From assembly GCA_021798115.1 (NCBI GenBank), contig JAJZYM010000018.1, positions 1 through 37,097 on the forward strand: a stretch of DNA of 37,097 bases, in the 5' to 3' direction. A program made the position numbers and the translations under genes. Under the pieces are notes generated by a model, which was not told the origin of the DNA, made no database searches, and was given only the letters and a program-made list of their open reading frames with translations. Positions 1 to 12,412 of the stretch are shown here, piece by piece. The DNA is from Pseudomonadota bacterium (GTDB lineage: Bacteria > Pseudomonadota > Gammaproteobacteria > JAKAQQ01). Numbering within the stretch: position 1 is the stretch's first letter; each line of letters starts with the position of its first letter.

Positions 1-125
1 GGGACAACACGCGGATGGGGGTGACGCTGATTGTGCCGGTGGCGATGGAGGAGGGGCTGCGCTTTGCGATCCGCGAAGGCGGCCGCACCGTCGGCGCCGG
101 AGTCGTCACCAAGATCCTCAAGTGA
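1..125 (+). CDS. tuf: Elongation factor Tu, C-terminal end (partial)
   Basis: Only the last 40 codons are in the window, read from base 3 to a TGA at 123-125. EF-Tu is the GTPase that delivers aminoacyl-tRNA to the ribosome. The fragment is the end of the third beta-barrel domain and carries the near-invariant run [15 protein letters not shown], which identifies it. It ends 22 nt before rpsJ on the same strand, the usual str-to-S10 junction. The short gap leaves little room for the long rpsJ leader known from E. coli, so rpsJ is probably read through from tuf. Confidence 0.97.
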
Positions 126-147
126 AGACATCGGGAGAGATCGTGCC

Positions 148-459
148 GTGAGCAGTCTGCGTTTTCGCATCCGTCTCAAGTCGTTTGATCATCGTCTTCT
201 CGACGAGGCGGCCCGGCAGGTGCTTGAGGCGATCAAGAGGAGCGGAGCCATCGTGCACGGACCGATCCCGCTTCCCGTGCGCACGGAGCGGTTCACCGTC
301 CTCGTCTCGCCAAACGCCGACAAGGACGCCCGCGATCAGTATGAAATCCGTACCTACAAGCGCATCATCGACATCGTCGAGGCCTCGGACAGCACGACGG
401 ATCATCTGCGGGACATCAAGCTGCCGCATGGGATCCAGGTGGCTATCGAGACATACTGA
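148..459 (+). CDS. rpsJ: 30S ribosomal protein S10
   Basis: S10 sits in the 30S head and, as NusE, also pairs with NusB in transcription antitermination. The product is 103 aa, the family length. The motifs [24 protein letters not shown] and [10 protein letters not shown] are diagnostic. The start is a GTG at 148, chosen because it gives the canonical N-terminus and follows a purine-rich GGGAGAGA about 9 nt upstream. The C-terminal part ([16 protein letters not shown]) differs from the E. coli form but keeps the length. A 134-nt gap with a promoter separates it from rplC. Confidence 0.97.
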
Positions 460-488
460 GGATGCGGTTTCCCCGGCGATCGAGGGTC

Positions 489-517
489 TTGACCTGAAGC
501 CGGGGAGTGGTTATACT
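489..517 (+). promoter_or_regulatory. Sigma70-type promoter between rpsJ and rplC
   Basis: TTGACC (489-494) is followed by a 17-nt spacer and TATACT (512-517). Both hexamers match the consensus at five of six positions and the spacing is ideal. Transcription should start near 524, giving a leader of about 70 nt before rplC. This is the best promoter-like sequence I found in the ribosomal protein region. Confidence 0.7.
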
Positions 518-522
518 TAAAA

Positions 523-586
523 GCTCGCCTCGTGAGGCGGGCCGGAGCGGGGTCAATCGTAACCCTGTTCCGTCACGATTGAGGAC
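523..586 (+). promoter_or_regulatory. Foldable leader upstream of rplC
   Basis: Two stem-loops can form in the predicted leader RNA. Hairpin 1 pairs 523-530 with 535-542 (8 bp, one G-U, CGTG loop). Hairpin 2 pairs TCAATCGT (553-560) with ACGATTGA (575-582), and its 3' arm runs into the purine-rich GAGGAC (581-586) that serves as the rplC ribosome-binding site. Folding of hairpin 2 could therefore control rplC translation. In E. coli the S10 operon is autoregulated by L4 through a leader before rpsJ; a similar role here is inference. Confidence 0.5.
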
Positions 587-593
587 TTGAGTC

Positions 594-1253
594 ATGACCC
601 TGGGTCTCGTGGGCCGCAAGTGCGGCATGAGCCGTATCTACACCGACGACGGTCGGGCCGTGGCCGTGACCGTGATTGAGGTCGAACCCAACCGCGTGGT
701 GCGCTTGAAGAGCGTGGCGAGCGACGGGTACTCGGCCGTCGAGGTCACCGTAGGCACCGTTGCCGCCGACCGGCTCACAAAGCCTCTGGCCGGGCATTTC
801 GCGAAAGCCGGTGTCGACCCCGGGCCGACCCTTCTCGAGTGGCGAGTCGATCCCGAGGAGGCCGGACGCTATCCGGTGGGCAGCACGATTCCCCTCACCC
901 ACTTGCGCGTCGGACAGGACGTCGACGTCCGTGGCCGGACGCGTGGCAAGGGGTTTGCCGGAACGATCAAGCGCCACCATTTCGCCAGTCAGGACGCCAC
1001 CCACGGCAACTCCCTCTCGCACCGTGTCCCGGGCGCGATCGGGCAGCGTCAGACCCCGGGTCGCGTGTTCAAGGGCAAGCGCATGGCGGGGCACTTGGGC
1101 GACGTCAACCGCACGCAGCTCAATCTTCGTCTCGTGCGGATCGATGAGGAGCGCGGGCTTCTTTATGTGTCCGGGGCGGTCCCGGGAGCGCCCGGCACCC
1201 TCCTCAAGATCCGCCCGGCCGTTCGCCGGCCTGCGGCCGAGGAGGCGTCGTGA
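594..1253 (+). CDS. rplC: 50S ribosomal protein L3
   Basis: L3 binds 23S rRNA near the peptidyl transferase centre and is an early assembly protein. The 219-aa product begins [20 protein letters not shown], the typical L3 N-terminus. It carries the extended-loop motif [20 protein letters not shown], which in E. coli contains the glutamine methylated by PrmB. The ATG at 594 follows GAGGAC. This is the first gene behind the internal promoter at 489-517. Its TGA shares a base with the rplD ATG, so the two are probably translationally coupled. Confidence 0.98.
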
Positions 1254-1876
1254 TGCGACTTCCCGTGGTGGGCGGCGCCGCCGCAACGGAGCTCGAGGTC
1301 GAGGAGACGACCTTCACGTCCGCGTTCAATGAGCCCCTGGTTCACCAGGTGGTCGTGTCGTACATGGCCGCAAGTCGCGCCGGAACGAAAGCCCAAAAAA
1401 GCCGTGCCTGCGTCCGCGGCGGCGGCCGCAAGCCGTGGAAACAGAAAGGATCGGGTCGGGCCCGCGCGGGCAGTACCCGAAGCCCCCTCTGGCGCGGCGG
1501 CGGTAAAATCTTCGCCGCCCGGCCGCGGAGCTTCGATCCCAAAGTCAACCGTAAGATGTACCGGGGCGCCATGAGAGCGATCCTTGCGGAGCTTGTCCGT
1601 CAGAAGAAGCTCACGGTGCTTGATCCTGGGGCGGTGGCCCTGAGTGCCCCCAAGACGCGTGAACTCGTCGGCCGCATCCGCAGCTGGGGGGTCGAGACGC
1701 TGTCGCTCCTTCTCGTCGTCGAAGCCCACGACGAGCGGCTGGCTCTCGCCGCGCGCAACCTGCCCGATGTCGACGTCTGCAGCGTCGAAGCGCTCGATCC
1801 CGTGCGCCTTGTGCGTTTCGAGGCGATCGCGATGACCGCACCGGCCCTGAAAAAAATCGAGGAGGCGCTTGCGTGA
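1253..1876 (+). CDS. rplD: 50S ribosomal protein L4
   Basis: L4 lines the nascent peptide exit tunnel through a long loop and represses its own operon in E. coli. The 207-aa product has the loop motif GGGRKPWKQKGSGRARAG near residues 53-70, followed by SPLWRGGG. The ATG at 1253 is preferred over a GTG three bases earlier because AGGAGG sits about 8 nt upstream of it; both choices overlap the rplC stop. The N-terminus is slightly divergent (VVGGAAATELEVEE). The last four bases overlap rplW as GTGA. Confidence 0.97.
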   Translation: MRLPVVGGAAATELEVEETTFTSAFNEPLVHQVVVSYMAASRAGTKAQKSRACVRGGGRKPWKQKGSGRARAGSTRSPLWRGGGKIFAARPRSFDPKVNRKMYRGAMRAILAELVRQKKLTVLDPGAVALSAPKTRELVGRIRSWGVETLSLLLVVEAHDERLALAARNLPDVDVCSVEALDPVRLVRFEAIAMTAPALKKIEEALA

Positions 1877-2184
1877 GTGACGACGCCCGGCTCTGGAGCG
1901 TGATCCGCGCTCCCCATGTGACCGAGAAAGCCACCCGCCTCGCCGCGGGCGGCCAGTATGTCTTTCGCGTCCGGCCCGAAGCGACCAAGGAAGAGATTCG
2001 TCGCGCTGTGGCCAAGGCTTTTGGCGTCACCGTCCTCGAGGTCAACGTTGTCCATCGCCGGGGTAAGGCCAAGCGGTTCGCCGGCCGTCTCGGTCGGCGG
2101 GTGGCCAGCAAGAAAGCCTACGTGCGCCTCGCTCCGGGGCAGCAACTCGATCTCGGCACTCCGCCCGTCGAGGCGGAGGGCTGA
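1873..2184 (+). CDS. rplW: 50S ribosomal protein L23
   Basis: L23 sits at the tunnel exit and is the docking site for trigger factor and SRP. The 103-aa product shows the L23 signature VIRAPHVTEKAT near residues 10-21 and AFGVTVLEVNVVHRRGKAKR around 50-70. It starts with a GTG whose GTGA overlaps the rplD stop, so it is likely coupled to rplD. Length is close to the E. coli protein (100 aa). Confidence 0.97.
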   Translation: MSDDARLWSVIRAPHVTEKATRLAAGGQYVFRVRPEATKEEIRRAVAKAFGVTVLEVNVVHRRGKAKRFAGRLGRRVASKKAYVRLAPGQQLDLGTPPVEAEG

Positions 2185-2199
2185 TCCAGGAAGAGCGCT

Positions 2200-3024
2200 A
2201 TGGCCACTGTCAAATCCCGACCCACCTCGCCCGGACGCCGTTTTCACGTGGAAGTCCCCCGCCCGGACCTCCACGACGGAGAGCCGTACCGTGCTCTCGT
2301 CACGCGCCTCCCGCGTCAGGGCGGACGCAACGCCCACGGACGAATCACCGTTCGCCATCGGGGCGGCGGATCGAAACGTCTCTACCGAGTGATTGATTTT
2401 CGCCGTGACAAGGACGCGATTCCTGCCCGGGTCGAGCGTCTCGAGTACGACCCCAACAGAAGCGCGCACATCGCCCTCCTGCTCTACGCCGACGGCGAGC
2501 GCCGCTACATCATCGCGCCCCAGCAGCTTGCCGTCGGGGACGAAATCCGTTCCGGAGCACAGGCGCCGATCCGTCCGGGCAACGCGCTCCCGCTCCGCAA
2601 CATCCCCGTAGGGAGCCTCGTGCACTGCATCGAAATCAAGCCCGGGCGCGGCGCGCAGCTGGCCCGCTCCGCGGGGGCCTCGGCTCAGCTCGTCGCCCGT
2701 GACGGACGCTACGCCGTCGTGCGCCTGCGCTCGGGCGAGCAGCGTCGCGTCCACGTCGAATGCCGCGCGGTGGTGGGTGAGGTGAGCAACCCCGACCACA
2801 GTCTCCGCGCCTACGGCAAGGCCGGTGCCAAACGCTGGCGTGGCATCCGTCCCACGGTGCGTGGGGTGGCCATGAACCCGGTCGACCACCCGCACGGTGG
2901 CGGCGAAGGTCGCGGCAAAGGCAACCATCCGCAGTCGCCCTGGGGTCAGCCCGCCAAGGGGTACAAGACGCGTCACAACAAGCGCACCGACGGGATGATC
3001 GTCGGCCGGCGCCGCAAGAAGTGA
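2200..3024 (+). CDS. rplB: 50S ribosomal protein L2
   Basis: L2 is essential for subunit association and peptidyl transferase activity. The 274-aa length is standard. The C-terminal motif [17 protein letters not shown] contains the conserved histidine implicated in function, and the tail [19 protein letters not shown] is typical. The N-terminal block [20 protein letters not shown] is also diagnostic. The ATG at 2200 lies 15 nt after rplW behind GGAAGAG. Confidence 0.98.
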
Positions 3025-3035
3025 GGAGGTAGGCC

Positions 3036-3320
3036 GTGCCGCGGTCCGTTCGCAAGGGTCCGTTCGTCGATCCGCATCTTGCCGACAAGGTCGCCAAGGC
3101 GGTGGCGAGCAAGAACAAGCGCCCGATCCAGACCTGGTCGCGACGCTCGATGGTTGTGCCTGACATGGTGGGACTCACCATTGCCGTGCACAACGGACGC
3201 CAGCACGTTCCGGTTTTCGTGACCGAGAACATGGTCGGTCACAAGCTCGGGGAGTTTGCCCCGACGCGGACGTTCAAGGGTCATCCGGCGGACAAGAAGA
3301 CGCCGGGAGCGACCAAATGA
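3036..3320 (+). CDS. rpsS: 30S ribosomal protein S19
   Basis: S19 is in the 30S head and contacts S13 and the A-site finger. The 94-aa product begins [17 protein letters not shown] and contains [19 protein letters not shown] and [18 protein letters not shown], all family signatures. The start is a GTG at 3036 behind GAGGAGGTAGG, a strong ribosome-binding site. It is followed by rplV after 17 nt. Confidence 0.97.
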
Positions 3321-3337
3321 CCGCCGGGGAGAGACCG

Positions 3338-3670
3338 ATGGAAACCATCGCACGCCACCGCTACGCCCGCCTTTCGCCGCAGAAGTGCCGGCTGGTGGCC
3401 GATCTTATCCGTGGCAAGAGTGTGGACGAGGCTCTGCGGGTCCTCCGTTTCTGCGAGAAGGATGCCGCGCGCATCGTTCGCAACGTGCTTGAATCGGCCG
3501 TGGCCAACGCCGAACACAATCGGGGTGCGGACGTCGATGTGCTGCGCGTCGTCCGTGTCACCGTTGACGAGGGACCGCGTCTCCGCCGCTTCCACGCCCG
3601 GGCGCGCGGCCGCTCGAACGTCATCATCAAGCGCACGTGCCACGTGACCGTGGCCGTCGACGCCCGCTGA
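3338..3670 (+). CDS. rplV: 50S ribosomal protein L22
   Basis: L22 reaches into the exit tunnel beside L4. I chose the ATG at 3338 because it gives [16 protein letters not shown] and 110 aa, the same length as E. coli L22, with GGGGAGAG about 6 nt upstream. An in-frame ATG at 3317 overlaps the rpsS stop and would add seven residues. The motif [16 protein letters not shown] at the C-terminus is typical of L22. Confidence 0.96.
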
Positions 3671-3679
3671 GGTTCCCCC

Positions 3680-4390
3680 ATGGGTCAGAAGGTTCACCCC
3701 GTCGGTTTTCGTTTGGGCATCACCCACAGCTGGTCTTCGACCTGGTACGGGGAGCGACGTGATTACGTGCGTGGAGTTCGGCTGGATCACGCGATCCGCA
3801 AGAAGCTCCTGACCACCTATCCCGAAGCCCGAATCGGGCAGATCGAGATCAAGAGGACGCTCGACCCGCGCAAAGGCGATCCTCTCGACATCGTCATCCA
3901 CGCGGCCCGGCAGGGGCACCTCATCGGCAAGAAGGCCGAGTACGACAAGCGCATGGGAGATCTCCGAACCATCGTGCTCGACATCGCGCGCGCCCAGGGC
4001 GTGGTCCTCGACGACAGGAATCTCAGCATCCACATTTCCGAGATCAAAAACCCCGAGCTCGATGCGAGCCTCGTCGCCGCGGACATCGCCGATCAGATCT
4101 CGCGCCGGATCATGTACCGCCGGGCGGTGCGGCGGGCCATCGCGGGGGCGATGCAGTCCAAAGCGTTGGGCATCAAGGTGCGGGTCTCGGGCCGGCTGAA
4201 CGATGCCGAGATTGCCCGCAGCGACTGGTTCCGCGAGGGACGCATTCCGCTTCATACGCTGCGCGCCGACATCGATTACGGATTTGCCACAGCGCGGACC
4301 ACCTACGGGACCATCGGGGTCAAGGTGTGGATCTTCAACGGGGAAGAGCGTGTCCGGGCGTCGGCCCCCGCTCTCGAGGCTATGGGGTAA
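3680..4390 (+). CDS. rpsC: 30S ribosomal protein S3
   Basis: S3 forms part of the mRNA entry channel. The 236-aa product starts [17 protein letters not shown] and ends with the S3 C-terminal domain ([20 protein letters not shown], then [17 protein letters not shown]). The KH domain lies around residues 39-107. Its GxxG loop reads [12 protein letters not shown] instead of the more usual IGKKG form, a small deviation. The ATG is at 3680, 9 nt after rplV, and rplP begins 4 nt after the stop. Confidence 0.97.
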
Positions 4391-4394
4391 GGTC

Positions 4395-4808
4395 ATGCTG
4401 CAGCCGAAACGCACGAAATACCGCAAACAGCAGAAAGGCCGCAACCGCGGGCTTGCCCAGGTGGGGAGCACGGTGGCGTTCGGCGATTTCGGACTCAAGG
4501 CTGTCTCGCGCGGACGCCTCACTGCGCGTCAGATCGAAGCCGCACGGCGAGCCATCACGCGCTACGTCCGTCGCGGGGGAAAGGTCTGGATCCGCGTCTT
4601 CCCCGACCTTCCGGTCTCGCGCAAGCCGCTTGAGGTCCGCATGGGCAGCGGCAAGGGCAACGTCGAATACTGGGTGGCGCGCATTCAGCCCGGCCGCGTC
4701 CTTTACGAAATGGAAGGGGTCAGCGAAGAGGTGGCGCGCGAGGCACTGCGGCTGGCCGCTTCCAAGCTTCCCGTCCGTACCGTCTTCGTCGCGAGGCATC
4801 TGTCGTGA
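4395..4808 (+). CDS. rplP: 50S ribosomal protein L16
   Basis: L16 organises the A-site side of the 50S subunit. The 137-aa product starts [19 protein letters not shown] and has [20 protein letters not shown] and [19 protein letters not shown], which are unmistakable for L16. The ATG at 4395 was chosen from this N-terminus, though the reading frame is open further upstream inside rpsC. The stop overlaps the rpmC GTG by four bases. Confidence 0.97.
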
Positions 4809-5011
4809 GTCGTGATCGCCTGCTGAACAAGACCCCCGCGGAGCTGCGGACGCTCGTGCGCGAGACCCGTCAGGCTCTCTTCCGCCTGCGCATGCAGCAC
4901 GCGGTCGGTCAGCTGCCCAAAACCCACGAGATTCGCGCCGCCCGTCGGGTCTTGGCGCTGGCCCTCACCCGGCTGAACGCCGTCCGTCCCGGCGAGGAGA
5001 AGAACCCGTGA
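4805..5011 (+). CDS. rpmC: 50S ribosomal protein L29
   Basis: L29 sits next to L23 at the tunnel exit. The 68-aa product shows [21 protein letters not shown] and the conserved helix [21 protein letters not shown]. The start GTG overlaps the rplP stop (GTGA), and its own stop overlaps rpsQ the same way. Length is slightly above the E. coli protein (63 aa). Confidence 0.95.
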
Positions 5012-5307
5012 GCTCCGTTGAGTCCTCGGCCCCACGCGGCCGTGTTGGGCGCGTTGATCGCGCCCGTATGCAGAAATCCGTGATCGTCGTCGTCGAGACT
5101 CTCGTCCGCCACCCGCGTTACGGCAAGTACCTGCGGATGCGCTCACGGATCATGGCGCACGACGCCGAGGGCCGTTGCCGTGAAGGCGACCTTGTGCGCA
5201 TCGTCCCTTCGCGCAAGCGCGCCAAACGCAAGGCCTGGGACGTGGCCGAGATCGTGGCGCGGGAGCCGGACGCGGTCCCGGCTGTGCCGAAGGAGACCGT
5301 GTCGTGA
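5008..5307 (+). CDS. rpsQ: 30S ribosomal protein S17
   Basis: S17 is a primary 16S rRNA-binding OB-fold protein. The 99-aa product has the core [20 protein letters not shown] and [19 protein letters not shown]. It is longer than the usual 84-90 aa because of a short N-terminal lead and a tail ending KETVS. The usual RPLSKTKSW segment reads [16 protein letters not shown]. The GTG start overlaps rpmC and the stop overlaps rplN, so the classical S10/spc operon boundary contains no intergenic DNA. Confidence 0.95.
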
Positions 5308-5672
5308 TCCAGATGGAAACCGTCCTCCTGGCTGCCGACAACAGCGGTGCGAAGCGGCTGCGCTGCATCAAGGTGCTGGGCGGCTCGCACCGCCGTTACG
5401 CCGCTGTCGGTGACGTGATCAAGGTGAGTGTGGTCGAGGCCATGCCCCGCGGCAAGGTCAAGAAAGGCGAGGTCTACGACGCCCTGGTCGTCCGCACGCG
5501 CAAGGGGGTGCGGCGGCCCGACGGCTCGGTGATCCGTTTCGACACGAACGCCGCCGTGCTTCTGACCAACAAACTCGAGCCGATCGGCACCCGCGTGTTC
5601 GGCCCGGTGACGCGCGAGCTCAGGACCGAACGCTTTATGCGGATCGCGTCGCTCGCGCCCGAAGTTCTGTGA
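5304..5672 (+). CDS. rplN: 50S ribosomal protein L14
   Basis: L14 contacts the small subunit in bridge B8 and binds the silencing factor RsfS. The product is 122 aa, a common length, beginning with I-Q-M-E-T and containing [18 protein letters not shown] and [20 protein letters not shown]. The GTG at 5304 gives this N-terminus and overlaps the rpsQ stop. In E. coli this gene heads the separate spc operon; here it must be cotranscribed with S10 genes. Confidence 0.98.
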
Positions 5673-5683
5673 GGACGTCCGTC

Positions 5684-5998
5684 ATGAATCGCATACGGCG
5701 CGGTGATGAAGTCATGGTTCTGAGCGGTCGGGACAAAGGCCGTCGCGGCACCGTCCTGCGCGTTCTCGGCGAGCGCGTGGTCGTCGAGGGCATCAACACG
5801 GTCAAAAAACACCAGCGGCCGAACCCCCAGAAAGGGGTGGCCGGCGGCATTGTCGAGCAGGAGGCCCCGCTCCACATTTCGAACGTCGCGCTCTACAACC
5901 CCGTCACGCGCAAACCCGACCGGGTGGGCTTCCGGGATCTCGCCGACGGCCGCAAAGTGCGCGTCTTCCGCTCCAACGGAGAGGTCATCGATGTCTGA
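5684..5998 (+). CDS. rplX: 50S ribosomal protein L24
   Basis: L24 initiates 50S assembly by binding the 5' part of 23S rRNA. The ATG at 5684 gives 104 aa, as in E. coli, with the KOW motif [20 protein letters not shown] near residues 6-25 and [16 protein letters not shown] after it. GAGGAC about 9 nt upstream is the binding site. An in-frame GTG at 5669 would overlap rplN but gives a non-standard N-terminus. It overlaps rplE by 8 nt. Confidence 0.96.
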
Positions 5999-6548
5999 GC
6001 GCACTTACGTTCCCCGCCTCGAACGCCTGTACCGCGAGAGCGTCGTTCCCGAGCTGCGCACGCGCTTTGGCTACGCCAATCCGATGGCGGTGCCGCACCT
6101 CGTCAAGATCACGCTCAACATGGGGGTGGGCGAGGCGGCGAGCGATCGCAAGAAGATCGAGAGCGCCGTGGCGGACCTGGCGCGCATCAGCGGGCAGAAG
6201 CCCGTCGTGACCCTGGCCCGCAAGTCCGTCGCCAGCTTCAAGATTCGTGAAGGCTGGCCGATCGGATGCAAGGTGACGCTGCGCCGGGCGCGGATGTACG
6301 AGTTTCTCGACCGGCTGATCAACGTGGCTCTTCCGCGCGTGCGTGACTTCCGTGGGCTCAACCCCCGCGGGTTCGACGGCCACGGAAACTACAGCCTCGG
6401 GATTCGCGAGCAGATCATCTTCCCCGAGATCGATTACGACAAGATCGACGTCCTCCGCGGGCTCGATGTCACCATCACCACCAGCGCCGCGAGCGACGAG
6501 GAGGCGCGTGAGCTTCTGCGCGCGTTCTCGTTCCCGCTGCGCACCTGA
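5991..6548 (+). CDS. rplE: 50S ribosomal protein L5
   Basis: L5 binds 5S rRNA together with L18 and contacts tRNA in the P site. The 185-aa product has [55 protein letters not shown] and [14 protein letters not shown] in family order. The ATG at 5991 lies inside the end of rplX behind GGAGAGG, indicating coupled translation. Confidence 0.98.
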
Positions 6549-6570
6549 CCCCGACGAGGGAGGTCCCTTC

Positions 6571-6876
6571 ATGGCCAAGCGATGCATGATCAACCGCGAA
6601 CTTCGGCGCCAGGCGCTCGCCGCCCGCTACCGGGACAAGCGTGGCACGCTCAAGAGCACCATCATCGACGCCCGCAAGAGCGACGAGGAGCGCGCCGCTG
6701 CCGTCCGGGCCCTGGCTCTCCTGCCCCGGGACAGCGCCCCCGTGCGTCAGCGCAGACGCTGCGCGCTGACCGGACGCCCCCGCGGCGTCTACCGCAAATT
6801 CGGCCTGAGTCGCCTTGTGCTCCGTGAGATTGCCATGCGTGGCGAGATCCCGGGCCTGCGCAAGTCGAGCTGGTGA
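6571..6876 (+). CDS. rpsN: 30S ribosomal protein S14, zinc-independent form
   Basis: S14 is in the 30S head. The 101-aa length equals that of E. coli S14, and there is no CxxC pair, so this is the C-minus form that does not bind zinc. The motifs [20 protein letters not shown] and IPGLRKSSW at the C-terminus are diagnostic. The ATG at 6571 follows GAGGGAGG. Confidence 0.97.
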
Positions 6877-6886
6877 GGGCCCGCCG

Positions 6887-7282
6887 ATGACCGTGAGCGA
6901 TCCCCTGGCCGATCTTTTGACGCGGATCCGAAACGCCCAGATGCGCGGGCACGAGACCCTGACGGTCGCCGCCTCACGTCTGCGCCGCGCGCTCCTCGAC
7001 GTGCTTCTGGCCGAGGGGTATCTCGACGCCGTCGACGAGACCGAGGACGGGGGTTTCCCTGCCCTCAAGGTGCGCCTCCGCTACCGCGAGGGGCGTCCCG
7101 CGATCCGCCGTCTCAAGCGGGTGAGTCGGCCGGGTCTTCGGATCTACCGCCGCCGCCGGGATCTCCCCCACGTGCTCAACGGCTACGGGATTTGCATCGT
7201 CTCGACCTCGCGCGGTGTCATGAGCGACCGCGACGCCCGCGCCCAGGGGCTGGGGGGCGAGGTTCTGTGCATCGTCGCCTGA
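6887..7282 (+). CDS. rpsH: 30S ribosomal protein S8
   Basis: S8 is a central-domain 16S rRNA binder and in E. coli represses the spc genes. The 131-aa product has SDPLADLLTRIRNAQMRGHE at the N-terminus and NGYGICIVSTSRGVMSDRDA near the C-terminus. The ATG at 6887 lies 10 nt after rpsN. Confidence 0.97.
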   Translation: MTVSDPLADLLTRIRNAQMRGHETLTVAASRLRRALLDVLLAEGYLDAVDETEDGGFPALKVRLRYREGRPAIRRLKRVSRPGLRIYRRRRDLPHVLNGYGICIVSTSRGVMSDRDARAQGLGGEVLCIVA

Positions 7283-7299
7283 GTCCGGAGGAATAAGCC

Positions 7300-7833
7300 A
7301 TGTCCCGCGTCGCCCGCATGCCGATCCCGGTTCCCAAGGGGGTCGAGGTGTCGATCGAGCCCGGTCGCGTTCGCGCGAAGGGCCCGAAAGGAAGTCTTGG
7401 GCTCGACGTTCCGCCCGTCGTCTCGCTCGAACGCGAGGGCGATGTCCTTCACATCCGCTGGGTCCCCGAACCCCGCCGGAACGTGGCCCTTGCCGGCACG
7501 ATGAGAGCGCTTCTCGCCAATCTCGTGCGTGGGGTCTCCGTGGGTTTCGAGAAGAAACTGGAACTCTCGGGCGTGGGCTTCCGTGCCCAGGTCCAGGGGC
7601 GCCAGCTGCAGCTGGCCCTCGGTTTTTCCCATCCTGTCGTGTATCCGATCCCCGAGGGGATCACGGTCGAGACCCCGTCGCAGACCGAGATCATCGTGCG
7701 CGGTGCCGACCGCCAACGGGTGGGCCAGGTGGCCGCGGAGCTTCGGGCGCTGCGTCGCCCCGACCCTTACAAGGGCAAGGGTGTCCGCTACGCCGGCGAG
7801 AAGATCGTCCTCAAAGAGACGAAGAAGAAGTGA
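7300..7833 (+). CDS. rplF: 50S ribosomal protein L6
   Basis: L6 lies near the factor-binding site of the 50S subunit. The 177-aa product has KGPKGSLGLDVP in the first domain and LSGVGFRAQVQGRQLQLALG, then the C-terminal signature RPDPYKGKGVRYAGEKI. The ATG at 7300 follows the strong site GGAGGAATAAGCC. Confidence 0.97.
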   Translation: MSRVARMPIPVPKGVEVSIEPGRVRAKGPKGSLGLDVPPVVSLEREGDVLHIRWVPEPRRNVALAGTMRALLANLVRGVSVGFEKKLELSGVGFRAQVQGRQLQLALGFSHPVVYPIPEGITVETPSQTEIIVRGADRQRVGQVAAELRALRRPDPYKGKGVRYAGEKIVLKETKKK

Positions 7834-7855
7834 GAACCGTGAGGAGTTGCCGACC

Positions 7856-8215
7856 ATGAGCATCAACCGTTTCGAACAGCGCGCCCGTCGGGCACGCAAG
7901 ACCCGTGCGGTCATCGCCCGCGGGACACGCGTGCGCCTCACGGTGCACCGCAGCGCCCGCCACATCTACGCCCAGATCTTCACCCCGCGCGGCGAACGCG
8001 TGCTCGTCCAAGCCTCGACGCTGGACAAGGAACTGCGCGACGCGACGGCCGGAGTGAACAAGACCGCGGCGGCGAGCGCCGTCGGCCAGGTGCTGGCCGC
8101 CCGCGCCCTGGCGCAAGGGATCACCGCCGTGGCTTTCGACCGCAGTGGTTTCCGTTACCACGGCCGCGTCCGTGCCCTCGCCGAAGCGGCCCGTACGGCC
8201 GGTCTTCAGTTCTGA
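7856..8215 (+). CDS. rplR: 50S ribosomal protein L18
   Basis: L18 binds 5S rRNA with L5. The 119-aa product shows [30 protein letters not shown] and [20 protein letters not shown], the family core and C-terminus. The ATG at 7856 follows GTGAGGAG; the frame is open further upstream inside rplF but that part is not L18-like. Confidence 0.97.
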
Positions 8216-8244
8216 CCGTGCCGTCCCAGCAGGAGAAACGAGCG

Positions 8245-8754
8245 ATGACAGCGACAAATGTAGAGACGAGGGACGAGCCCCGCGAGAAACTGGTGGCCGT
8301 CAACCGTGTGGCCAAGGTTGTCAAGGGCGGGCGGCGCTTCGCTTTCGGCGCGCTCCTCGTCGTCGGTGACGAGCGGGGGCGGATCGGGGTGGGCTATGGC
8401 AAGGCCCGCGAGGTCTCGCTCGCCATCCAAAAAGCGAAGGCGGCGGCGCAGAAGACCATGGTGCGTGTCCCGCTCCACGGCAACACCGTGCCGTACGCCG
8501 TCTGGGGCGAGCACGGCTCGACCCGCGTCTACATCCAACCGGCTTCGCAGGGCACCGGACTGATCGCCGGGGGCGCGATGCGTGCCGTCTTCGAGATGCT
8601 GGGGATCCGCAACGTCTTGGCCAAGGCGATGGGCTCGCGCAACCCGCACAACGTCGTGCGGGCAACGCTCGACGCCCTTGCCCAGCTCGAATCTCCGCGC
8701 CGTATCGCCGCCCGTCGCGGACTTCCCGCCGAGCGTCTGCGGGTGGCCCGATGA
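8245..8754 (+). CDS. rpsE: 30S ribosomal protein S5
   Basis: S5 is at the mRNA entry site and affects decoding accuracy. The 169-aa product has [19 protein letters not shown], the site of E. coli spectinomycin-resistance changes, and [21 protein letters not shown] chose the ATG at 8245, about 10 nt after AGGAG, because it gives near-standard length. A GTG at 8218 in frame would add nine residues. The last four bases overlap rpmD as ATGA. Confidence 0.97.
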
Positions 8755-8966
8755 GCGCCGCTTCCGCCCCCGCCGCGCGGGTTCGCGTCACGCTCGTGCG
8801 CAGCCTGGCCAAACGCACCTCCCGTCAGCGCGCCTGCGTGCGCGGGTTGGGCCTTCGCCGGCTTCATCATTCCGTCGAGGTGAACGCCACCCCGGAAAAC
8901 CTCGGGATGATTCGGGCCGTCGGCTACCTTCTGCGCATTGAGGAGATCGGCCATGCGTCTGAATGA
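8751..8966 (+). CDS. rpmD: 50S ribosomal protein L30
   Basis: L30 is a small 50S protein found in a subset of bacteria. The 71-aa product has the L30 pattern [39 protein letters not shown] and [14 protein letters not shown]. An N-terminal lead of about ten residues ([10 protein letters not shown]) makes it longer than the 59-aa E. coli form. The start overlaps rpsE by four bases and the end overlaps rplO by 14. Confidence 0.95.
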
Positions 8967-9387
8967 TCTCGCCCCCGCACCGGGGGCTCGCCCGCGCGCG
9001 ACGCGCGTGGGCCGCGGCCCCGGATCCGGCCTTGGCAAAACCTGCGGTCGTGGCCACAAAGGTCAGCACGCGCGCGCCGGAGGGCTGCGCAAGGTCGGCT
9101 TCGAGGGTGGGCAGATGCCGTTGCAACGCCGTCTTCCCAAGACCGGCTTCCGTTCTCCGCACGCCGGACGGGTCCGGACTTTGCGCCTCGACCGTCTGTC
9201 CCACGTGGCGGCCGAGGTCGTCGATCTCGATGCCCTCAAGAAGGCCGGACTCGTGCCGCAGCACACCGAGGCGGTCAAGATCGTCGTCCGCGGCAGCCTG
9301 ACGCGGCCCGTGCGGGTGCGTGGCCTCGCGCTCAGCCGGGGCGCGCAAGCGGCCCTCGAAGCGGCCGGTGGCCGGGTGGAGGACTGA
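8953..9387 (+). CDS. rplO: 50S ribosomal protein L15
   Basis: L15 is a late 50S assembly protein. The 144-aa product, the E. coli length, starts [20 protein letters not shown] and carries [19 protein letters not shown] and [17 protein letters not shown]. The ATG at 8953 lies within rpmD behind GAGGAGATCGG. secY begins 1 nt after the stop. Confidence 0.97.
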
Positions 9388-9388
9388 G

Positions 9389-10717
9389 ATGGCGCGTTCC
9401 GCCGCGCAGGCCACGACCTCCTTTGCTGGGCTGACCCGCTCGAAGGACCTTCGGCGGCGGTTGCTCTTCCTGGCCGGGGCGCTCCTCGTCTTCCGGATCG
9501 GCGCGCACATCCCGGTGCCCGGCATCAACCCCGAAGCGCTCGCCCGGCTGTTTCACAGCCAATCGGGCGGGATCCTCTCCATGTTCAACATGTTTTCCGG
9601 AGGCGCGCTCGCGCGGATGAGCGTTTTCGCCCTCGGCATCATGCCGTACATCTCGGCGTCGATCATTGTCCAGATGCTGAGCTCGGTGCTTCCGAGCCTC
9701 GAGGCTCTCAAGAAAGAAGGCTACGCAGGGACGCGCAAGTTGACCCGCTACACGCGCTACAGCACCGTAGGGCTGGCCGTTGTGCAGTCGGTGTTCGCCT
9801 CGATCGCGCTCGAGAGCCGCGGGGTGGTCATCGACCCCGGTCCCGGCTTCGTGATCCTCTCCACGCTCAGCCTGGTCGCCGGAACGATGTTTCTCACCTG
9901 GATCGGCGAGCAGGTCACCGAGCGGGGCATCGGCAACGGTATCTCGATGATCATTTTTGCCGCCATCGTGGCCGGGCTTCCGTCGGCCGTGAGCGGCTCG
10001 CTCAGTCTCGTCAGCACCGGGCAGCTGTCTCCGCTCGTCGGCATTCTGGTCTTCGCCCTCGTCCTCGGGGTGACGACGTTTGTGGTCTTTGTCGAGCACG
10101 GACAGCGGCGGATCACCGTCCACTACGCCCAGCGCCAGCAGGGGCGTCAGCTCTACGCGGCGCAGAGCACGCATCTTCCGCTCAAGCTCAACATGAGCGG
10201 TGTCATCCCGCCGATTTTCGCCTCGAGCATCCTGCTCTTCCCGGCCACGATCGCCGGCTGGTTCGGCAGCGGGAGCCACGCGCTTCTGCTGCAGAAGGTG
10301 GCGGCGCTTCTCTCGCCTCCCTCTCTGGCCTACATCCTGATCTTCGCCATTCTCATCATCTTCTTCTGCTTCTTCTACACGGCGCTGGTCTTTAATTCGC
10401 AAGAGACCGCCGACAACCTCAAAAAGTCGGGGGCGTTCGTTCCCGGCATCCGTCCCGGGCAGCAGACGGCCGAGTACGTCGACCGCGTGCTCAGCCGCCT
10501 CACGTTCTGGGGTGCGCTCTACGTGACGGCCGTTTGCCTTTTGCCCACGTTTTTGATTGCCTACACACACGTCCCGTTCTACTTTGGCGGGACCTCGCTC
10601 CTCATCATCGTGGTGGTGGTCATGGATTTCATGGCCCAGCTCCAGGCGCACGCCATGACCCACCAGTACGAGGGGCTTCTCAAGAAAGCCGGTCTGCGCG
10701 GGGGTCGGCGCAACTGA
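9389..10717 (+). CDS. secY: Protein translocase subunit SecY
   Basis: SecY is the channel of the SecYEG inner-membrane translocon. The 442-aa product has about ten hydrophobic segments. Recognisable blocks are [17 protein letters not shown] after TM1, [16 protein letters not shown] in TM2, [20 protein letters not shown] around TM5, and the cytoplasmic-loop region [20 protein letters not shown]. The ATG at 9389 is only 1 nt from the rplO stop and sits behind GGAGGACTGAG. The length matches E. coli SecY (443 aa). Confidence 0.98.
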
Positions 10718-10751
10718 TGCACACCCGGGTCTCGTCCCGGAGGGGGTACGC

Positions 10752-10865
10752 ATGAAGGTACGGGCTTCGGTCAAACGCATGTGCCGCAACTGCAAGGTGG
10801 TGCGGCGTGCGGGGGTCGTGCGGATCGTCTGCACGGACGCCCGCCACAAGCAACGCCAAGGTTAA
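10752..10865 (+). CDS. rpmJ: 50S ribosomal protein L36, zinc-binding form
   Basis: This 37-aa gene begins [19 protein letters not shown] and ends DARHKQRQG. The CxxC pair at residues 11 and 14 and the later C and H are the zinc ligands of the C-plus L36 form. The ATG at 10752 follows GGAGGGGG. Its position between secY and rpsM is conserved and marks the end of the spc genes. Confidence 0.96.
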
Positions 10866-10876
10866 GGAGACTCTTG

Positions 10877-10885
10877 TGCTATACT
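10877..10885 (+). promoter_or_regulatory. Extended -10 promoter candidate before rpsM
   Basis: TGC followed by TATACT (10880-10885) is an extended -10 element; I see no good -35 upstream. Transcription would start near 10892 and could supply rpsM-K-D-rpoA-rplQ separately from the spc genes. Only 57 nt lie between rpmJ and rpsM, so the long S4-binding pseudoknot leader known in E. coli does not seem to fit downstream of it. Confidence 0.4.
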
Positions 10886-10922
10886 GTTCCGTTCCAGTTG
10901 GTCTTCGTCCCGAGGGGGTCGC

Positions 10923-11285
10923 ATGGCGCGCATAGCAGGGGTCAACATCCCGGCCACCAAGCATACGGTGATCGCGCTCACGAGCATCTACGGGATCGGT
11001 CACGCGCGCGCGCGGGCCATCTGCGCGGCGGCGGGCGTCGACCCTGCCACCAAGGTGCGCGATCTCAGCGACGCTGAGGTTGACGCCCTGCGTGAGCAGG
11101 TGGCGCAACACCGGGTCGAGGGTGATCTCCGCCGCGAGATCGCCATGAACATCAAGCGTCTGATGGATCTCGGATGCTACCGTGGGCTTCGCCACCGCCG
11201 GGGTCTTCCGGTGCGCGGGCAGAGGACACGGACCAACGCCCGCACGCGCAAGGGACGGCCACGGGCCGGGAAACGTTCGTCGTGA
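10923..11285 (+). CDS. rpsM: 30S ribosomal protein S13
   Basis: S13 is in the 30S head and makes the B1a/B1b bridges. The 120-aa product starts [20 protein letters not shown], has the helix-turn region [19 protein letters not shown], and ends with the basic tail [20 protein letters not shown]. The ATG at 10923 follows GAGGGGGTCGC. Confidence 0.97.
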
Positions 11286-11351
11286 GGCGCTGCCCGTCCA
11301 CAGCGGTCCGCCCGCAACGAAGCATTATCCTTCTGACGGAGGCCAACGGTC

Positions 11352-11738
11352 GTGGTTGAGAACGCTCGCGCCCGTAAACGTGTCAAGAAAGTTGTGCCGG
11401 AAGCGCTGGTGCATGTGCACGCGTCCTTCAACAACACCATCATCACGGTCACCGACCGGCAGGGCAACGCGCTCGCGGCGGCCAGCGCAGGCGGCGCAGG
11501 ATTTCGCGGCTCACGCAAAAGCACCCCGTTTGCGGCGCAGATGGCCGCCGAAAAAATCGCGCCGGTCATGCGTGACTATGGGATCCGCACCCTGGATGTC
11601 CTCGTCGCGGGACCGGGCCCGGGACGCGAGTCGGCGGTGCGGGCCTTCCACAATCTCGGGTTCAAGATCAACACCATTTCGGACGTGACGCCGATCCCGC
11701 ACAACGGGTGCCGTCCGCCCAAGAGACGGCGCGTCTGA
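11352..11738 (+). CDS. rpsK: 30S ribosomal protein S11
   Basis: S11 forms part of the 30S platform near the E site. The 128-aa product has [33 protein letters not shown] and [19 protein letters not shown], and ends [16 protein letters not shown], the classic S11 C-terminus. The start is a GTG at 11352 behind GGAGGCCAAC. A 66-nt spacer separates it from rpsM, in which I see no clear signal. Confidence 0.97.
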
Positions 11739-11776
11739 TGCGCCCTTTCTGCAGCCGCTGAGGTCGGACAACGCTC

Positions 11777-12412
11777 ATGGCACGATATCTCGGACCCCGT
11801 ATGAAGCGCGCCCGCCGCGTCGGAACGGATCTTTCCCTTTCGATCAAGGCCCTTGCGGACAAATCGCCCAAGCGCCATCAGCGCCCCCCGGGTCAGCACG
11901 GCGCGGCCGCGGGGCGCGGTCCGCGCAGCAAAAGCTCCGACTACCGTCTGCAGCTCCTCGAGAAGCAGAAGCTCCGCTACACCTACGGGATCCTCGAGCG
12001 GCAGTTCCGCCGCTACTACAGCGAAGCCTCCAAGCGCCGTGGGGCCACGGGGGTCACGCTTCTTCAGCTTCTTGAGACGCGCCTCGACAACGTCGTCTAC
12101 CGCTTGGGGTTCGCCTCAACCCGCGCCGAGGCCCGCCAGCTGGTGAGCCACCGTGGGGTGAGCGTGAATGGGCGGACGGTCAATCTTCCGTCCTACGGAT
12201 GCCGGAGCGGGGACGTTGTGGCTCTCCGCGACAAAAGCCGGGCGCAGCAGCGTGTACGCGACGCCTTGGAGCAGGCCTCGGCCCGCGAACCGGTGCCGTG
12301 GCTCACGCTCGACACCGCGCGTTTCGAGGGGCGGATCCTCGATCTTCCCAAGCGGGAGGATCTTGACCCGCAGATCAACGAAAACCTTGTTGTGGAGCTC
12401 TATTCCAAGTGA
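11777..12412 (+). CDS. rpsD: 30S ribosomal protein S4
   Basis: S4 nucleates 30S assembly and represses the alpha operon in E. coli. The 211-aa product starts [18 protein letters not shown], contains RPPGQHG near residues 36-42 and the S4 RNA-binding domain ([20 protein letters not shown], then [17 protein letters not shown]). It lacks the N-terminal cysteine cluster, so it is the zinc-free form. It ends [11 protein letters not shown]. The ATG is at 11777. Confidence 0.97.

What the first reader, a model, noticed from the sequence alone, without database searches (positions are those of the whole stretch)
489..586. Promoter and foldable leader between rpsJ and rplC
Seen: TTGACC-17-TATACT followed by two perfect or near-perfect hairpins, the second reaching the rplC ribosome-binding site. 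Known: in E. coli the L4-controlled leader precedes rpsJ. Inference: here S10 leader-type control has moved one gene downstream, leaving rpsJ with tuf, and may form a different L4-, L3- or other ligand-responsive element.
Basis: partly seen in the sequence, partly recalled or inferred. Interest (0 to 1): 0.62.

Follow-up and report, generated by a model that had tools for sequence, protein, structure and literature searches.

The report
Ribosomal-protein control hairpin before rplC
The gap between two ribosomal-protein genes holds a promoter and a conserved RNA hairpin that is the same one found in E. coli's known self-control leader for this operon, but sitting one gene further along, which suggests that this feedback control is older and more widespread than thought.

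Summary
TTGACC-17-TATACT (489-517) is the only promoter-like site of 10/12 or better in the 37-kb window, and it is conserved in congeners whose spacer has diverged. The leader folds into two hairpins, 523-542 and 544-571.

That hairpin has a strongly conserved 8-nt loop, CAAUCGNA, on a covarying stem (7 of 8 pairs change on both sides). A covariance model searched through 369 genomes of the class gave 38 hits. All 30 fetched lie in the rpsJ-rplC gap, usually 23-34 nt before rplC. The same loop and stem form the attenuator hairpin (stem E) of the E. coli S10 leader, where they precede rpsJ by about 60 nt. It has no Rfam match and no rRNA look-alike.

Best explanation: a compact leader through which excess L4 represses translation of rplC and the genes behind it. 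The structure and its link to the S10 leader are shown. L4 as ligand, and repression, are inferred. The E. coli parts D and the U-run are absent, so this is a variant and not a plain member.

The parts
148..459 (+). rpsJ (S10), GTG start, 22 nt after the tuf stop codon
   Evidence: NCBIfam S10; EF-Tu C-terminus ending at 125
489..494 (+). -35 box TTGACC
   Evidence: 5/6 positions identical in three congeners
512..517 (+). -10 box TATACT; predicted transcript start about 523-525
   Evidence: 6/6 positions identical in three congeners; start position inferred
523..542 (+). first hairpin GCUCGCCU-CGUG-AGGCGGGC at the predicted 5' end; sequence not conserved, stem kept in congeners
544..571 (+). 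conserved hairpin, 10-bp stem with 8-nt loop CAAUCGUA (554-561) closed by U553-A562; equivalent of stem E of the E. coli S10 leader
553..582 (+). alternative 8-bp pairing TCAATCGT 553-560 / ACGATTGA 575-582, next to the SD; kept in the three congeners only
   Evidence: predicted probability about 0.004 or less
581..585 (+). Shine-Dalgarno GAGGA of rplC
   Evidence: sequence
594..1253 (+). rplC (L3), first gene behind the leader
   Evidence: NCBIfam L3
1253..1876 (+). rplD (L4), the presumed regulator, second gene behind the leader; frame read from 1253, start codon not fixed here
   Evidence: NCBIfam rplD_bact

Best explanation
The rpsJ-rplC gap is the promoter and autoregulatory leader of an S10 operon that begins at rplC. 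RNA polymerase starts near 523-525 and makes a leader of about 70 nt: a 5' hairpin (523-542), then a hairpin with the recognition loop CAAUCGNA (544-571), then the rplC SD and start. When L4 (rplD, second gene) is made in excess over free 23S rRNA, it binds the CAAUCGNA hairpin and blocks initiation at rplC, and so lowers expression of the genes behind it. Shown: the promoter match and its conservation, the hairpin and its covariation, its almost exclusive placement before rplC (or before rpsJ in Enterobacteriaceae), and identity of loop and stem type with stem E of the E. coli S10 leader. Inferred: start site, L4 as ligand, translational (not attenuation) mode, since no U-run follows the hairpin here.
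For: Covariation: 44 distinct sequences, 91.8% of cells paired, 7 of 8 pairs with changes on both sides, covariation score 0.646 against 0.242 in shuffles and at most 0.21 in slid controls. RNAalifold finds the same 8 pairs unprompted. Check without a pairing filter: of 42 distinct CAATCGNA octamers in rpsJ-rplC gaps, 22 have all 8 flanking pairs; of 154 elsewhere only 2 do, one of them an rplC-gap copy on a contig where rpsJ was not detected. Specificity: whole-genome search of 369 genomes of the class gave 38 places at E<=0.05; all 30 fetched lie between rpsJ and rplC, and three more lie just before rplC by coordinates. The own genome has one strong hit. Spacing to the rplC start is 23-34 nt in most. 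E. coli S10 leader: the same hairpin CCCAUCAAUCGUAAUGGG at stem E, with covarying copies in Enterobacteriaceae-like families. L4 is the established regulator of that leader (PMC10578931; PMC10931766). Promoters: 24 of 50 motif gaps have a site of 9/12 or better, against 3.4 expected.
Against: No transcript or binding data. In E. coli, stem D is what is described as required for L4 control and stem E as the attenuator hairpin (PMC10578931). The window leader has no stem D equivalent and no U-run. Most other Enterobacterales sampled keep stem D but not the CAAUCGNA loop, so the loop need not be the L4 contact. The hairpin shows no recognisable mimicry of 23S or 16S rRNA. Several relatives have gaps too short for a promoter as well, so the element can also act on read-through RNA.
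Confidence: 0.6

Rival explanations
1. Same leader and position, but the ligand is not L4: L3 (the first gene) or another S10-operon protein reads the CAAUCGNA loop.
For: rplC is the gene immediately behind the hairpin in nearly all relatives; the E. coli L4 determinant is described as stem D, not stem E; stem D equivalents are absent here.
Against: In E. coli the same hairpin is part of a leader controlled by L4, where it precedes rpsJ and not rplC.
Confidence: 0.2
2. The hairpin serves transcription: a NusA- or pause-related attenuator or anti-terminator element, as stem E does in E. coli, with regulation by any bound factor.
For: Stem E is the attenuator hairpin in E. coli, followed there by AUUUUCGUUU; several relatives carry a G+C-rich hairpin with a T-run just upstream of the motif (for example L055, L134, L144, L149).
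Against: No T-run follows the motif hairpin in the window or in most relatives; the hairpin keeps a near-constant distance to the rplC start, which points to translation.
Confidence: 0.12
3. A ligand-free structure: the hairpin merely shapes the rplC RBS or protects the 5' end, or switches with the RBS-proximal pairing 553-560/575-582.
For: The alternative pairing touches the SD and is kept in three congeners.
Against: Loop letters are almost invariant over many families while the stem changes freely, the mark of a recognised site; the alternative pairing is absent outside the genus and energetically weak.
Confidence: 0.06
4. Chance similarity: the E. coli stem E and the rplC-gap hairpins arose independently and share no function.
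Against: Identical UCAAUCGUAA core with a covarying stem at the same operon; copies in Enterobacteriaceae-like families keep the loop while the stem changes.
Confidence: 0.05

Closest known systems
E. coli S10 operon leader (L4-controlled; stems A-E)
   Same: Stem E: stem closed by U-A, 8-nt loop CAAUCGUA, near the first ribosomal-protein gene of the operon; operon encodes L4
   Different: Lies between rpsJ and rplC, not before rpsJ; leader about 70 nt, not about 170; no stem D; no U-run; 23-34 nt from the start codon rather than about 60
23S domain-I look-alike leader in the same gap of Oceanospirillaceae-type genomes (L068, L081, L243, L244)
   Same: Structured element in the rpsJ-rplC gap just before the rplC SD
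   Different: Those resemble 23S rRNA (Rfam LSU model, E 1.6e-08 for L081); the window hairpin does not resemble rRNA
Ribosomal leaders of Eckert et al. 2020 (PMC7247131) and of Rfam 15
   Same: Kind: cis-acting RNA before ribosomal-protein genes, supported by covariation
   Different: None of the 20 motifs is an rplC/L3/L4 leader of Gammaproteobacteria; no Rfam match for the window or the E. coli leader

Membership tests
E. coli-type S10 (L4) leader | Stem E with loop CAAUCGNA | tested here: met
   window 544-571
E. coli-type S10 (L4) leader | Stem D (CUCCCGAUUUGGGAG type), described as required for L4 control | tested here: not met
   First window hairpin is GCUCGCCU-CGUG-AGGCGGGC; no such stem in 515-600 (against 56, 57)
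E. coli-type S10 (L4) leader | U-run after stem E (attenuation site) | tested here: not met
   GUCACGAUUGAGGAC follows the stem
E. coli-type S10 (L4) leader | Located before rpsJ | tested here: not met
   Between rpsJ and rplC
E. coli-type S10 (L4) leader | Repression by L4 | not testable with these tools
   needs binding or reporter assays
rRNA-mimicking ribosomal leader | Match of the recognised element to the ligand's rRNA site | tested here: not met
   Covariance models R1 on the E. coli rRNA operon and R2 on the E. coli and own rRNA operons, filters off: nothing above noise on the rRNA strand
Ribosomal leader (general: conserved covarying RNA consistently before ribosomal-protein genes) | Covariation and consistent gene context | tested here: met
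Rfam families | Match at gathering score | tested here: not met

The most novel reading that the evidence does not exclude
The CAAUCGNA hairpin is an old autoregulatory operator in front of rplC, present before Gammaproteobacteria and the former Betaproteobacteria split; the E. coli S10 leader is a later composite in which rpsJ came under the same promoter and stem D was combined with it. L4 feedback on this operon would then be older than the literature states ('emerged rather lately').
Probability: 0.4. Interest if true: 0.7.

Novelty: new variant of a known kind. Interest (0 to 1): 0.6.

Why it matters
[quoted passage not shown] The attenuator hairpin of that leader turns out to recur with an almost fixed loop before rplC in many families of the class and in Neisseriaceae. 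This gives a minimal, roughly 70-nt test object for what L4 (or another protein) reads, and makes the origin of the E. coli leader testable.

Tried and rejected
An rRNA mimic was considered (by eye the loop resembles GGCCAAUCAAACC of 23S domain II); the covariance models gave no match above noise on the rRNA strand. A loop-tail pseudoknot (554-560 with 575-581) was considered and rejected because 0-nt and 3-nt connecting loops would have to span 7- and 10-bp stems. RBS sequestration by the 8-bp repeat: probability about 0.004 or less, not conserved outside the genus. Rfam at relaxed E-value: nothing relevant except the Oceanospirillaceae 23S look-alikes. The key L4 papers (Allen 1999, Stelzl 2003, Worbs 2000, Fu 2013) are not in the held library. 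Text searches for an rplC leader or promoter or for the loop sequence found nothing relevant. Phylum-wide search: six weaker hits (E 0.013 or more) away from the S10 locus are taken as chance.

Full report
Where it is. The window is the start of a contig from an uncultivated gammaproteobacterium (own genome 1.88 Mb, 38 contigs; relatives). The end of tuf (EF-Tu C-terminus, stop at 123-125) is followed by rpsJ 148-459, a 134-nt gap, rplC 594-1253, then rplD, rplW, rplB, rpsS, rplV and rpsC.

The observation. TTGACC-17-TATACT at 489-517 is the only promoter-like site found in window 1-12000 and the only one with 10/12 or better in the whole window. In three congeneric genomes the two boxes are kept (11 of 12 positions) while the spacer (8/17) and the upstream flank (14/29) have diverged. 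In the sister genera of the family a TTGATT-17-TATAAT/TATCAT site occupies the same place. Behind it the RNA folds into 523-542 and 544-571.

The conserved hairpin. rpsJ-rplC gaps of relatives showed a recurring GGUCAAUCGNAAUC core. Aligned, it is a stem of 5-11 bp closed by U-A or C-G around an 8-nt loop CAAUCGNA. In 44 distinct sequences 7 of 8 pairs change on both sides, the covariation score is 0.646 against 0.242 in shuffles and at most 0.21 in slid controls, and RNAalifold predicts the same pairs. Some of these sequences had been picked with a minimum stem length, so a check without that filter was run: of 42 distinct CAATCGNA octamers in such gaps, 22 have all 8 flanking pairs, against 2 of 154 elsewhere, one of which is an unrecognised rplC-gap copy.

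Specificity. A covariance model from the first 19 sequences was run over 369 genomes of the class: 37 genomes had a hit at E<=0.05 (38 places). All 30 fetched places lie between rpsJ and rplC. Of the other eight, three (G165, G275, G303) lie just before rplC by coordinates, three do not, and two were not resolved. The own genome has one strong hit, at the window site. In most cases the hairpin ends 23-34 nt before the rplC start. By record title four loci are Neisseriaceae (L062, L077, L097, L105), so the former Betaproteobacteria are included. A further survey of about 100 loci drawn mainly one per family added four, two of them loop variants (L191, L198, L226, L251). The distribution is patchy: about one genome in ten. 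In a phylum-wide search with a refined model, 23 of 29 hits checked lie in the S10 locus; the six others are weak and lie elsewhere.

Link to the E. coli S10 leader. The model's best hit in 20 kb of E. coli DNA is in the S10 leader: CUCCCAUCAAUCGUAAUGGGUCUGAGGAG before rpsJ. Folding that leader gives five hairpins, and this is the fifth, followed by AUUUUCGUUU. It therefore corresponds to the attenuator hairpin, stem E, of the literature (PMC10578931); that assignment is mine. In E. coli's relatives the CAAUCGNA stem E was found before rpsJ in a few Enterobacteriaceae-like families, while most other Enterobacterales sampled keep stem D and not this loop. So the same hairpin occurs in two places: before rplC in many families, before rpsJ in Enterobacteriaceae.

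How it probably works. L4 regulates the E. coli S10 operon at transcription and translation through this leader (PMC10931766; PMC10578931). An invariant loop on a freely changing stem, at a near-constant distance from the rplC start, is what a protein-read translational operator looks like. The parsimonious reading is that L4 binds the hairpin and represses rplC and the genes behind it. The window leader lacks stem D and a U-run, so E. coli-type attenuation is unlikely here. Whether the ligand is L4 is not shown: stem D, absent here, is the part described as required for L4 control in E. coli. L3 or another protein remains possible.

Promoters. Of 50 motif-bearing gaps, 24 have a promoter-like site of 9/12 or better upstream of the hairpin, against 3.4 expected from resampled sequence. 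Congeners and near-identical relatives are among the 50, so the events are fewer than 24. Several gaps are too short for a promoter, and there the hairpin must act on read-through RNA from rpsJ.

Known or new. No Rfam family matches the window or the E. coli leader; the 20 leaders of Eckert et al. 2020 do not include it; text searches found no description. Key older papers on L4 control were not readable, so earlier notice of the loop in E. coli relatives cannot be excluded. The claim that L4 control arose late in Gammaproteobacteria (citing Allen et al. 1999) rests, as far as could be read here, on leaders before rpsJ; leaders before rplC seem not to have been examined.

Limits. No expression or binding data; MAG sequences; family names of most genomes are hidden; the direction of relocation is not settled because no rooted tree was made.

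Noticed in passing
L068, L080, L081, L243, L244 (rpsJ-rplC gaps): A different leader in the same gap, in records named Oceanospirillaceae and Terasakiispira among others, looks like 23S rRNA domain I (GGGCAGCCATAGCGGGTGATAGCCCCGTACAC; Rfam LSU model E 1.6e-08 for L081), near the L4 site as I recall it; a likely rRNA-mimicking L4 leader.
   Followed up: partly
L025, L055, L074, L134, L138, L149, L160, L193, L253 (rpsJ-rplC gaps): Many gaps carry a TATAAT-like box followed at once by a GGCCCG...CGGGCC hairpin, sometimes with a T-run, starting about at the predicted transcript start; it looks like a promoter-proximal terminator or attenuator.
   Followed up: no
window 553-582: The loop strand TCAATCGT is perfectly complementary to ACGATTGA overlapping the rplC SD; kept in all three congeners, absent elsewhere.
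   Followed up: partly
L260-L289 upstream of rpsJ: Stem D of the S10 leader (CUCCCGAUUUGGGAG type) is conserved over most of the sampled Enterobacterales even where the stem E loop is lost.
   Followed up: partly
L305, L306, L314: Loop variants CAAUUGAA and CAAUUGUA in some families, at 45-56 nt from the rplC start.
   Followed up: no
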